Positions 49,013-51,577 of a stretch of 64,000 bases of DNA are shown here, in pieces. The stretch comes from Marinilabilia rubra (GTDB lineage Bacteria > Bacteroidota > Bacteroidia > Bacteroidales > Marinilabiliaceae), in NCBI RefSeq assembly GCF_003121985.1, contig NZ_QEWP01000002.1, positions 310,001 to 374,000 of the forward strand. Direction: 5' to 3'. Under the pieces are notes generated by a model that was given only the letters and a program-made list of their open reading frames with translations, made no database searches and was not told where the DNA came from. Both the position numbers and the translations under genes were made by a program. Every line of letters begins with the position of its first letter. Positions within the stretch are counted from its first letter, which is position 1.

Positions 49013-49766
49013 AATTTATTAGATCATTAGATATTTAGATAATAAATAAAAGATGCTTTGGGATGGTTTGATAAATCACTTTGATACATTTGCCACATCA
49101 ATAAAAAAACATACCAGAAACAAATTGACATCAAAAGAAGGATATTTTGAAAAAAAATACAAGATTTTTATGTTTTTTGTATTTAAAACAAACAAATACC
49201 AAAGCCCCATATAACAATATGTAACATGGAGGAATTTTTGGGTGTCTTGTATTTGAACCACGTGGCCACAGAAGGTAACATAAGGTTTTAGAACCATATC
49301 CGAAATATCAGACCATTTCAGGTTGTCAGAAAAATTGCAGTGTAAAAAGGTGCGGCAGATTCTTTTGCAGACAACCTTATAAGAAGGTTTCAAAGGGTGG
49401 GTTTAACCTCCCTTTGGTATGGTAGATTCCGGTCTGCAATTTTATAACGGCGGATCGGAATCCGCCGCACCTAATTGACCAAAATACTGAAGGTCAGCTA
49501 AGCAGAACTCAAGACCAGTGTCCTACTGCCCAAGGTATGGTGGATTTAATCCACCATTATATAGGACGGATGAAATTCGTCGTTCCCGGGAGCCACTATT
49601 GCTCACCACCGATTAAGAAAACCATCTCTCCCCAATAGCCCATGGTCCCTGTCCCAATCTTGGATTAGATCTATAGATCGTTAGATTTTTAGATAAAAGT
49701 AACCCAGCCGCCGAAGCGGCATATCCAAAAATCTAACGGGGGAACGGGTCTCGTCCTTTGGAAATT
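49013..49766. repeat. Repeat-rich gap left of the IS110 element
   Basis: No gene is seen. Two tandem units start GGTATGGT(A/G)GATT near 49418 and 49535. Each ends in a hairpin whose arms vary together: GGCGGAT-cg-GAATCCGCC near 49448-49466 and GACGGATgaaATTCGTC near 49565-49582. Further right, a partial relative of the 136-bp element end (near 49668-49700) leads into a 23-bp sequence (49689-49711) repeated at 51256-51278 just past the transposase. Confidence 0.55.
49689..49711 (+). repeat. Left copy of a 23-bp direct repeat flanking the IS110 gene
   Basis: TTAGATAAAAGTAACCCAGC... differs from the right copy at 51256-51278 at a single base (A against G). The two copies are 1,544 bp apart. Confidence 0.7.
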
Positions 49767-49922
49767 TATCTTTGTAAAAAAAGGTAATGTTCAGACCTTA
49801 CTAGTCAATGGTGCTTTTGAGCCCAAATAAAAGTATAGGCCTATATGCTTTTAAATATCCAATTGGTGACTTCCGATCCCTCATAAAAGAATATTTAATT
49901 TTTATGCATATTGAACATTACC
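49767..49922 (+). ncRNA. Candidate IS110 bridge-RNA-like leader
   Basis: A TAnnTTTG element, TATCTTTG (49767-49774), is followed after 8 bases by GGTAATGTTCA (49783-49793). This pairs perfectly with TGAACATTACC at 49912-49922, enclosing about 120 nt. Inside are a GGTGCT/AGCCC hairpin (49810-49824) and an AAAAG-TATAGG/CCTATA-CTTTT hairpin (49829-49852). IS110 elements express a guide RNA from their left non-coding end. Position, promoter and size fit that role, but guide loops and element ends cannot be proven here. Confidence 0.5.
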
Positions 49923-49941
49923 ATAAAAAATATTTTTATGG
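49921..49941 (+). promoter_or_regulatory. Hairpin enclosing the transposase start codon
   Basis: CCATAAAAA (49921-49929) pairs perfectly with TTTTTATGG (49933-49941) around a 3-nt loop, burying the ATG at 49938. Its first two bases are also the last two of the long leader stem. Confidence 0.6.
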
Positions 49942-51254
49942 CAAAGATAATTAATCCAAATGCAGCAGGCATAGATATTGCCTCAAATGTTCATTATGTA
50001 GCAGTGTCAGAAGATAAGTGTGAAAATCCTGTTCGAAGCTTTAAGGGCTTTACAAGAGATTTACACATTCTTTCAAAATGGTTGGTAGATCTTGGAATCA
50101 AAACTGTTGCTATGGAATCAACAGGAGCATATTGGTTTCAACTATACACCATCTTACTAGATTATGGGATGGAGGTATTTCTGGTAAATGCTGCTCATGT
50201 GAAAAATGTGCCAGGTAGAAAATCGGATGTCATTGATGCACAATGGCTACAGGAGCTGCATGAGAATGGTTATCTGACAGCATGTTTTCAACCTGATAAT
50301 TTGACCAGAGAACTTAGAACTTATGTGCGTCTAAGAAAGCAGATTATAAAAGAGATGGCAACAGAGACACAGCGTATGCAAAAAGCCATGGTAAATATGA
50401 ATATCAAATTACACGATGTAATCAGTGATATTAATGGACGTACCGGAAGAGCTATTGTTGATGCGATTATTGATGGAGAACGAGATCCTAAGCGTTTAGC
50501 ATCATTTCGTAATAGGAGAATTAAATGTTCAGAAGAAAATTTGCTCAAATCACTAGAGGGAAATTGGAGGGATGAGCAAGTTTTTTGTTTGAAAATGGCA
50601 CGTGACAAGTATGTCGAACTAGAACGTCATTTGCAAAAAACAGATCAGGAAAGTGAAAGAATTATCAAGCTTTTTACCAATACTGATATAGAAGAAAAGA
50701 AAGTGAAATCAAGGCCCCGGCAAAATAAACAGCCTAATTTTAATGTAGGCCAATATTTATACAATGTACACGGAGTCGATGTATTGGAAATTTTTGGTTT
50801 TAAGCAAACAGGTGCGCTTACGGTTTTATCGGAGACAGGCCCTAATTTAAAAGAAAACTTTCCATCGTTAAAACAATTTCATTCTTGGTTAAACTTGGTG
50901 CCTAATAATGAAATATCTGGCGGAAAAATATTGAAATCGAAAGTAAGAAAGAGGAAAAACCATGCCGGACAGGCTTTTAGAGAAGCGGCCAATGGCTTGT
51001 GGAATTCCCATAATCCTTTTGGGGACTATCTCAGGACAAAAAAGGCTAAATCAGGAGCAGGTCCTGCAGTCATTGCCACAGCAAAAAAAATCGCAACAAT
51101 TTATTACAAGATGGTAACAGAGAAAGTTGAATTTGACCCGTACATTATTGATGGAAACAGGCAAGTTTATTTACAGAAAAGAGCCAAATCATTATCAAAA
51201 ACACTCGAAAGCATAAACAAACAACTATCTGAAATTGAAAAACTTGCATCATGA
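49938..51254 (+). CDS. IS110-family transposase (DEDD recombinase)
   Basis: Site-specific recombinase of the IS110 group, 438 residues from the ATG at 49938. The RuvC-like N-terminal domain carries a DEDD set that lines up with the family: D13 in AGIDIAS, E60 in VAMEST, D97 and D100 in RKSDVIDAQ. A helical linker follows (about 120-245). The C-terminal transposase_20-type domain carries the candidate serine S327 in NNEISGGKIL. It is longer than the well-studied IS621 protein, mostly by a middle insertion and a coiled C-terminus. The frame is intact, so the element may be active. Its start codon lies in a hairpin. Confidence 0.93.
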   Translation: MAKIINPNAAGIDIASNVHYVAVSEDKCENPVRSFKGFTRDLHILSKWLVDLGIKTVAMESTGAYWFQLYTILLDYGMEVFLVNAAHVKNVPGRKSDVIDAQWLQELHENGYLTACFQPDNLTRELRTYVRLRKQIIKEMATETQRMQKAMVNMNIKLHDVISDINGRTGRAIVDAIIDGERDPKRLASFRNRRIKCSEENLLKSLEGNWRDEQVFCLKMARDKYVELERHLQKTDQESERIIKLFTNTDIEEKKVKSRPRQNKQPNFNVGQYLYNVHGVDVLEIFGFKQTGALTVLSETGPNLKENFPSLKQFHSWLNLVPNNEISGGKILKSKVRKRKNHAGQAFREAANGLWNSHNPFGDYLRTKKAKSGAGPAVIATAKKIATIYYKMVTEKVEFDPYIIDGNRQVYLQKRAKSLSKTLESINKQLSEIEKLAS

Positions 51255-51255
51255 G

Positions 51256-51278
51256 TTAGATAAAAGTAGCCCAGCCGC
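51256..51278 (+). repeat. Right copy of a 23-bp direct repeat flanking the IS110 gene
   Basis: It begins one base after the transposase stop codon and matches 49689-49711 at 22 of 23 positions. The DNA just beyond is a GGAAG/GTTAGAAG-rich low-complexity stretch. Confidence 0.7.
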
Positions 51279-51577
51279 GCGGAAGCCGGAAGCTGGAGGC
51301 TGGAAGTTAGAAGTTAGAAGCTGGAAACTTTCGAAGTTAAGAAATTTTGATTCTTTTTGCGGCATATTTAAAAAACTAAGAAAATTATAAAAAACACGTT
51401 TTAAATGGTTTATGACTTTACTTAGATAAAAGGATAATACTTGATTTTTTTACTTCCCTCCAGGCTCTGACCCTACTATTTCTCCATTCCACCTTTCTCC
51501 CCTCTACCATCTCACCCTCTCCTCCTCCTTTAACATCTCTTAAACCAGCAACACCCCTCTCGCCGAAAAGGATTAAC
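51279..51577. other. Intergenic low-complexity region
   Basis: It contains repeats of GGAAGCTGGA and AAGTTAGAAG to about 51330, then AT-rich and CT-rich DNA. No gene is seen. Confidence 0.6.

What the first reader, a model, noticed from the sequence alone, without database searches (positions are those of the whole stretch)
49767..49937. Structured promoter-driven leader of an IS110 element: candidate bridge RNA
The DNA just before the transposase shows a TAnnTTTG element, then an 11-bp perfect stem (49783-49793 with 49912-49922) enclosing about 120 nt and two smaller hairpins. IS110-family elements are known to make a guide (bridge) RNA from this end, with the promoter completed only when the ends join in the circular form. 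Here a -7 element is present but no -33 box at the right distance, which fits a promoter split across the joined ends. The transposase is also much longer than the studied IS621 protein, so both RNA and protein may be a different subgroup.
Basis: partly seen in the sequence, partly recalled or inferred. Interest (0 to 1): 0.72.

Follow-up and report, generated by a model that had tools for sequence, protein, structure and literature searches.

The report
Bridge RNA with swapped guide order
A jumping gene in this bacterium carries an RNA that appears to guide where it inserts; such RNAs are known, but here the guide segments sit in the opposite order from the studied RNAs encoded on the same side of the gene, and the RNA seems to read the element's own end in an unusual, possibly folded form.

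Summary
The stem, hairpins and -7 box are real. The RNA at 49783-49922 is best read as the bridge RNA of an IS110-family element at about 49700-51266 with core AG. [quoted passage not shown] RTG and RDG are the weaker signals. Both stems and the subterminal inverted repeats pair within elements. Differences from IS621 and ISEc21: left guides lie 3' and right guides 5', the order published for IS1111, although the RNA is upstream of the gene; and RDG is identical to, not complementary to, the left end's top strand about 21 nt inside. The latter would fit a folded bottom-strand donor, which is inference. The split promoter is not supported: the left end lies 67 nt upstream of the -7 box. A 438-aa protein is within the published range. 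The window's own RTG does not match its present right neighbour, a MITE with the same ends.

The parts
49691..49699 (+). Left target flank AGATAAAAG; last two bases AG are the core
   Evidence: Matches LTG 49825-49833 in ATAAAAG; 24 of 24 distinct left contexts of this left end or the related MITE end in AG, 13 of 24 in ATAAAAG
49700..51266 (+). IS110-family element, left end to right end (boundaries inferred)
   Evidence: Guide matches; ends fixed independently in relatives by tandem copies in G647 and four copies in G496
49707..49720 (+). Small inverted repeat in the left end (GCCGC / GCGGC)
   Evidence: over 21 elements the best-hairpin score sums to 97.5 against 76.1 (sd 4.0, highest 86) in 300 shuffles
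49721..49728 (+). Left-end segment ATATCCAA, identical to RDG of the RNA
   Evidence: group tests
49731..49737 (+). Left subterminal inverted repeat ATCTAAC
   Evidence: Pairs with GTTAGAT 51255-51261
49767..49774 (+). -7 box TATCTTTG of a Bacteroidota-type promoter
   Evidence: TAnnTTTG lies 37-44 nt before hairpin 1 in 12 of 26 Bacteroidota leaders against 2.9% of mononucleotide shuffles
49783..49922 (+). Predicted bridge RNA; outer stem 49783-49793 / 49912-49922
   Evidence: 5' and 3' ends of a transcript not tested
49800..49806 (+). RTG (right target guide) region ACTAGTC
   Evidence: Position by analogy with relatives; no match to the present right flank in the window
49809..49824 (+). 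Hairpin 1 capping the target loop
49825..49833 (+). LTG (left target guide) AAATAAAAG
49843..49911 (+). Inner stem (49843-49852 / 49903-49911) enclosing the donor loop
   Evidence: two-sided changes kept in pairs 88-156 to 93-151 of alignment A1
49855..49862 (+). RDG (right donor guide) ATATCCAA
49864..49880 (+). Hairpin 2 capping the donor loop
49882..49889 (+). LDG (left donor guide) CATAAAAG
   Evidence: Matches right end ATAAAAG 51260-51266
49938..51254 (+). IS110 recombinase, 438 aa plus stop
   Evidence: solved relatives ISCro4 and IS621
51255..51266 (+). Right end GTTAGATAAAAG: subterminal repeat GTTAGAT and left donor ATAAAAG with core AG
51267..51432 (+). MITE with the same kind of ends, abutting the right end

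Best explanation
The leader is the bridge RNA of an IS110-family element with a long (438 aa) recombinase. The RNA begins after the -7 box and folds into an outer stem and two internal loops, each capped by a hairpin. In the target loop the 5' side (RTG) pairs with the top strand right of the core AG and the 3' side (LTG) with the bottom strand left of it. [quoted passage not shown] Shown by sequence statistics: guide matches, their sense and order, stems, inverted repeats, core AG. Inferred by analogy with IS621 and ISEc21: transcription, binding to the protein, and that the pairing drives excision and insertion.
For: LDG matches the right end: 27 of 33 with 7 nt or more, own-pair mean 7.18 against 5.06 for other pairs, 0 of 20,000 permutations as good; hold-out 21 elements p <= 5e-5, antisense p = 0.30. 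LTG matches the left flank: 18 of 32 with 7 nt or more, p <= 5e-5; hold-out p <= 5e-5, antisense p = 0.93. RTG is complementary to the right flank: 29 elements, p = 2e-5, same-sense p = 0.69; hold-out n = 14, p = 0.0047, same-sense 0.85. RDG is identical in sense to left-end bases 1-30: 21 elements, p <= 5e-5, antisense p = 0.20, 17 elements after removing near relatives p = 2e-5; hold-out n = 17, p = 0.0095, antisense 0.77. Outer and inner stems pair within elements (32 elements, p <= 5e-5 each) and so do the subterminal repeats (20 elements, p <= 5e-5). Nine of 32 predicted pairs show two-sided changes among four sequences. Ends checked independently by tandem copies and by four copies plus 50 exact intact target sites in G496.
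Against: The discovery elements were annotated by eye with flanks in view, so their p-values are optimistic, and the permutations treat related elements as independent. LDG fails (4-6 nt) in L048, L112, L017, L100, L101, L102, and the hits of L014 and L016 are away from the expected place; LTG has 6 nt or less in 14 of 32. Hold-out RDG is not significant against the whole upstream region (p = 0.26) nor against left-end 1-60 (p = 0.065). The window's own RTG does not fit its right neighbour or the flanks behind the MITEs, and in the window left target and left donor are the same letters. No transcript, binding or movement was shown.
Confidence: 0.85

Rival explanations
1. Ordinary IS621-type bridge RNA with left guides 5' and right guides 3'; the order reported here is an artefact of annotation.
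For: The RNA is upstream and the end behind the gene is short, as in the IS110 group (PMC11208160). Discovery annotation was not blind.
Against: Hold-out annotation saw only 225 nt of leader, and LTG and LDG repeat with p <= 5e-5 in the sense given here while antisense controls fail. RTG 5' of hairpin 1 is antisense to the right flank and not same-sense in both sets. RDG antisense to left-end bases 1-15, as IS621 would have it, shows nothing (p = 0.82).
Confidence: 0.06
2. [quoted passage not shown] the inverted repeats serve the protein.
For: It needs no unusual DNA structure; published bridge RNA work uses double-stranded donors (PMC11208160).
Against: It does not explain why RDG has the opposite strand sense from RTG, nor why its site sits behind a small inverted repeat and before the subterminal repeat.
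Confidence: 0.5
3. A regulatory mRNA leader (attenuator or translation control) of the recombinase.
For: The structure ends 15 nt before the ATG and the -7 box lies inside the element, so leader and gene could be co-transcribed.
Against: Loop segments track element ends and insertion sites element by element, which a regulatory leader would not do.
Confidence: 0.04
4. Chance matches and fold in an A+T-rich leader.
For: Single 7-nt matches also occur in 8-10% of unrelated pairs.
Against: Permutation, antisense and hold-out results.
Confidence: 0.01

Closest known systems
IS621 bridge RNA, IS110 group (PMC11208160: abstract, sections 5, 6, 12 and found passages read)
   Same: Upstream (left-end) RNA, two internal loops reading target and donor, guides for both strands, short right end, recombinase with PF01548 and PF02371
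   [quoted passage not shown] Here: order reversed, RDG identical to the top strand about 21 nt inside, longer subterminal repeats (7 bp in the window), -7 box 67 nt inside the element
ISEc21 seekRNA, IS110 family (PMC11187229: abstract, sections 6, 9, 12, 13 and found passages read)
   Different: ISEc21 has the bottom-strand match 5' and the top-strand match 3'; here top-strand match 5', bottom-strand match 3'; 358 aa against 438 aa
IS1111 elements ISEc11, ISPa11, ISKpn4 (same paper)
   Same: Top-strand match 5' of bottom-strand match; subterminal inverted repeats
   Different: IS1111: RNA downstream, repeats usually 11-13 bp with 7-bp and 3-bp extensions, 330-350 aa. [quoted passage not shown]
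Integron attC sites (recalled, not searched)
   Same: In the folded model the joined ends would form a hairpin with an outer repeat, an internal loop and an inner stem, read from the bottom strand
   Different: RNA-guided DEDD recombinase rather than a tyrosine integrase; analogy only

Membership tests
IS110 family | DEDD domain (PF01548) and C-terminal domain (PF02371) in the recombinase | tested here: met
   77.6 bits (cut-off 29) and 28.7 bits (cut-off 21.3); NF033542 205 bits (cut-off 140)
IS110 family | SG within a G--P----SG motif near the C-terminus | tested here: inconclusive
   LVPNNEISGG at residue 320: P----SG present, the G three residues before P is N here; catalytic role not tested
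IS110 family | Insertion at a short core without target duplication | tested here: met
   In relatives: G496 copies and intact sites. For the window itself no empty site was found (only the right flank was searched, in 4 congeners)
IS110 group | Longer non-coding end, with the RNA, upstream of the gene | tested here: met
   Left end 238 nt (49700-49937), right end 12 nt
IS110 group as in IS621 and ISEc21 | Bottom-strand (left) guide 5', top-strand (right) guide 3' | tested here: not met
   the reverse order in the group of relatives; for the window element itself LTG and LDG only
[quoted passage not shown]
   Antisense to left-end 1-15 p = 0.82, 1-30 p = 0.20
IS110 group as in IS621 | Promoter reconstituted across the joined ends | tested here: not met
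   -7 box 31-67 nt inside the left end in 8 of 8 elements with both mapped; a further promoter across the junction was not scanned for
IS1111 group | RNA downstream of the gene | tested here: not met
IS1111 group | Subterminal repeats usually 11-13 bp with 7-bp and 3-bp extensions | tested here: not met
   GTTAGAT / ATCTAAC, about 31 nt and 5 nt outside
IS1111 group | Top-strand match 5' of bottom-strand match | tested here: met
   Group tests; not demonstrable for the window's own right flank
Bridge RNA | Two loops with guides for target and donor | tested here: met
   (statistical)
Bridge RNA | Transcribed, bound by the recombinase and reprogrammable | not testable with these tools
   Needs experiments
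395-455 aa subgroup that includes IS110 itself | Place in a recombinase tree | not tested
   Only the length was compared; no tree with ISfinder references was built

The most novel reading that the evidence does not exclude
In this long-recombinase group the bridge RNA reads its own element as a folded DNA hairpin. When the ends join, the subterminal inverted repeats and the small left-end repeat let the bottom strand (or a cruciform) fold like an attC site; LDG pairs with one side of its internal loop and RDG with the other, so the folded donor meets the RNA with the same strand polarity as the double-stranded target does. The guide order is that of IS1111 although the RNA is encoded upstream.
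Probability: 0.35. Interest if true: 0.85.

Novelty: new variant of a known kind. Interest (0 to 1): 0.62.

Why it matters
Bridge RNAs are used as programmable recombination tools. A group found here in Bacteroidota, Pseudomonadota, Cyanobacteriota and a Wolbachia phage record, with the RNA upstream but the guides in the reverse order, gives rules for predicting its targets and breaks the published pairing of upstream RNA with bottom-then-top order. If the donor is read as a folded hairpin, the question why a RuvC-like (junction-resolvase-like) enzyme does this work becomes directly testable.

Tried and rejected
Split promoter: rejected once the left end was placed at 49700. An early idea that the element begins at ATCTAAC or ends at 51255 beside the repeat: rejected, since relatives show CTAAC/GTTAG-like pairs as internal repeats with the core outside them. 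The repeat behind the gene as a plain host repeat: replaced by a MITE with the same kind of ends. IS621-type RDG next to the core: no signal. RTG prediction for the window (GACTAGT to the right): matched neither by the MITE nor by the right flanks of MITEs. Empty site in congeners: only the right flank was searched, in 4 genomes; gene matches at 70-75%, no empty site recognised. Viral contigs: 5 stretches matched a pattern, none encoded a relative. Distant IS110 relatives (L020, L023-L026, L028, L030, L031, L036) were printed but not analysed.

Rows dropped. Discovery: 33 elements, annotated by eye with flanks visible. Not used: repeat fetches of one place (L009, L010, L032, L033, L037, L038, L092-L097), L099 (tandem copy of L107), L034 (left side replaced), L019 and L022 (contig ends), fragments L041-L044, distant L020, L021, L023-L031, L036. 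L105 has no hairpin 1 annotation. For the right-flank test (29 elements) L016, L048 and L017 had no usable right end, L105 no RTG; junctions of L014 and L112 were set by hand; L107's 'right flank' is its tandem copy's left end, and for L089 the first of two ATAAAAG was taken. For the left-end tests 21 had an LTG match of 6 nt or more (L012 and L110 excluded by hand; guide length set by hand for L046, L108 and L114). Hairpin 2 of L112 was first annotated wrongly and corrected (discovery RDG sense sum unchanged at 123). Hold-out: of 27 loci L115-L141, 21 used; L115, L126 and L136 (no recognisable leader printed) and L139-L141 (further copies of L137) dropped; the CDS end of L125 was set by hand; 17 used for RDG (L120, L134, L135, L137 out), 14 for RTG (L121, L127, L133 without a usable right end). 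Hold-out hairpins were annotated from 225 nt of leader, which hid right ends and left flanks but showed part of the left end in a few. In the hold-out a 22-nt RDG window was also tried after the 16-nt one (p = 0.00055).

Full report
WHAT IS THERE. The stem and hairpins are at the stated coordinates and the leader folds better than each of 200 shuffles (z = -4.36). The gene behind it is an uninterrupted IS110-family recombinase of 438 aa; by sequence its only convincing solved relatives are ISCro4 (E = 1.9e-5) and IS621 (E = 4.2e-5). No Rfam family reaches its gathering score. The genome search found this one complete copy, a decayed copy on contig C7 (75-81% identical pieces) and a 42%-identical relative at C12:290161-291453.

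RELATIVES. Protein searches of 198, 393, 395 and 395 genomes (overlapping sets; 23, 4, 9 and 15 genomes passed the different E-value limits), of genome contigs and of plasmid and phage records (373 and 4 records) gave relatives; those analysed are 35-73% identical and come from Bacteroidota, Pseudomonadota, Cyanobacteriota and Wolbachia phage WO. Their leaders share one plan: an outer stem, a target loop capped by a TGGTG...CCC-like hairpin, then an inner stem around a second such hairpin. Among four close relatives 9 of 32 predicted pairs show changes on both sides with pairing kept. Over 32 elements the outer and inner stems pair better within than between elements (p <= 5e-5 each).

GUIDES. 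Each loop segment was tested by asking whether an element's segment matches its own DNA better than other elements' DNA (permutations of the pairing). LDG, about 9 nt after hairpin 2, matches the right end near the stop codon: 27 of 33 with 7 nt or more, mean 7.18 against 5.06, 0 of 20,000 permutations as good; for instance ATAAAAG (window), ATGAAAG (L047), TATGATAG (L039), GTATAGAAG (L040), TAAGGTAG (L046). It fails in L048, L112 and L017 (4-5 nt) and L100-L102 (6 nt), and the L014 and L016 hits are off the expected place. LTG, after hairpin 1, matches the left flank: 18 of 32 with 7 nt or more, p <= 5e-5; TCAGCAG (L047), AACTCAG (L039), CATCAAG (L107) and AGGCAAG (L113) are unlike those elements' own left donors. 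RTG, before hairpin 1, is complementary to the right flank (29 elements, p = 2e-5; same-sense control p = 0.69; with fixed positions strongest at an offset of 2, also seen at 3 and 4). RDG, before hairpin 2, is identical in sense to the first 30 nt of the left end (21 elements, p <= 5e-5; antisense p = 0.20). In 21 hold-out elements LDG and LTG repeat (p <= 5e-5 each; antisense 0.30 and 0.93); RTG repeats more weakly (n = 14, p = 0.0047; same-sense 0.85) and so does RDG (n = 17, bases 1-30 p = 0.0095, 16-60 p = 0.031, 1-60 p = 0.065; antisense 0.77, 0.70, 0.86). Searched against the whole upstream region the hold-out RDG gives nothing (p = 0.26), so that step depends on the left end placed by LTG.

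ENDS. The matches place AG at both ends of most elements; a sub-set has AA or AT-like cores. Checks that do not rest on guide matches: two tandem copies in G647 meet at CTTAAGAG|TATACAGC; four copies in G496 share the left junction TCATCCTGAG|AATTAAAA and the right junction ATTGGTAG, followed in three of four by TCGAAGGATC after a few bases, and the genome has 50 exact sites TCATCCTGAGCGNAGTCGAAGGATC (101 on each strand with up to two mismatches, control 0); L047 lies in a stretch whose paralogue in the same genome lacks it, with no length change at the joint by eye. For the window this gives 49700-51266. Of 24 distinct left contexts of this left end or its MITE, 24 end in AG and 13 in ATAAAAG.

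COMPARISON WITH PRINT. PMC11187229 (sections 6, 9, 12, 13 and passages read) reports the top-strand match 5' of the bottom-strand match for the IS1111 elements tested, with a downstream RNA, and the reverse for ISEc21 with an upstream RNA. PMC11208160 (sections 5, 6, 12 and passages read) reports left guides on the 5' side and right guides on the 3' side for IS621. Here the RNA is upstream but the order is top then bottom. Extended Data Fig. 10c of the latter paper draws six further predicted RNAs; the figure is not held, so this order may be drawn there. Literature searches (listings only apart from these two papers; no preprints held) showed no title or abstract opening that states it.

THE DONOR. 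In IS621 the right donor guide pairs with the top strand next to the core. Here that test shows nothing (antisense to bases 1-15, p = 0.82). Instead RDG equals the top strand, in most of the matched elements 18-25 nt inside, behind a small inverted repeat (97.5 against 76.1, sd 4.0, highest of 300 shuffles 86) and before the subterminal repeat that pairs with the right end (20 elements, p <= 5e-5). Five of 21 elements show only 4-nt matches (L047, L011, L114, L015 and others by position), so the signal is not uniform. If the bottom strand of the joined ends folds on these repeats, its internal loop offers the left-donor complement on one side and the RDG complement on the other, with the polarity that RTG and LTG meet on the target. 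This explains the odd sense and the spacing but is inference; pairing with the bottom strand of a duplex is at least as likely.

PROMOTER. TAnnTTTG stands 37-44 nt before hairpin 1 in 12 of 26 Bacteroidota leaders (2.9% of mononucleotide shuffles), so the -7 box is probably real. In the 8 elements with a mapped left end it lies 31-67 nt inside, so the junction cannot supply a -33 box at the usual spacing. Whether another promoter spans the junction was not tested.

LIMITS. Discovery annotation was not blind; elements are related; the window's RTG cannot be matched to its present right flank; its left target and left donor are the same letters. Nothing here shows transcription, binding or movement.

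Noticed in passing
window 51267-51432; G000 contigs: A 166-bp MITE-like repeat with the same kind of ends (TAGCCCAGCCGC... and ...TTAGATAAAAG). Besides the window copy, 24 matches of 150 nt or more elsewhere in the genome (where 40 of 95 candidates were scored); left sites read AGATnnnAG or close to it. It looks like a non-autonomous derivative of an IS110-type element; which element moves it is open.
   Followed up: partly
L012, L013, L014, L018, L101, L106: A related set is inserted after GTTAG-like sequences and its joined ends (CGTTAG...CTAACG) resemble integron attC sites (resemblance recalled, not tested).
   Followed up: no
G053:C1, L047 against L098: The closest relative (73%) is inserted in a stretch that resembles a group II intron with its reverse transcriptase gene (resemblance by eye and recall); a paralogue without the insertion is in the same genome.
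   Followed up: partly
G496:C1 (L137, L139-L141): Four copies inserted in an abundant palindrome-like repeat, TCATCCTGAG|CGNAGTCGAAGGATC.
   Followed up: partly
L114, L116, L121, L122, L127-L129: Left targets ending in TAAAAAA, guide TTAAAAAA: one recurrent target in Pseudomonadota and some Bacteroidota-phylum genomes; possibly a transposase frameshift site (recalled, untested).
   Followed up: no
window 49700 and relatives: The first base of the left end (T or C) equals the RNA base right after LTG in nearly all elements where LTG matched; L137 is an exception (AG|A against C). Unexplained, and partly favoured by how the match was found.
   Followed up: no
L025, L026, L028: More distant IS110 genes carry, downstream of the gene, a motif like the target loop here (GGTCGG...TGTGGTGGC...CCCCG...GACC or TGGCC), which suggests the same RNA type on the other side of the gene.
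   Followed up: no
G000:C12:290161-291453 (L046): A second, 42%-identical IS110 element about 19 kb upstream of the window with the same RNA plan and its own guide (LDG and right end share TAAGGTAG).
   Followed up: partly
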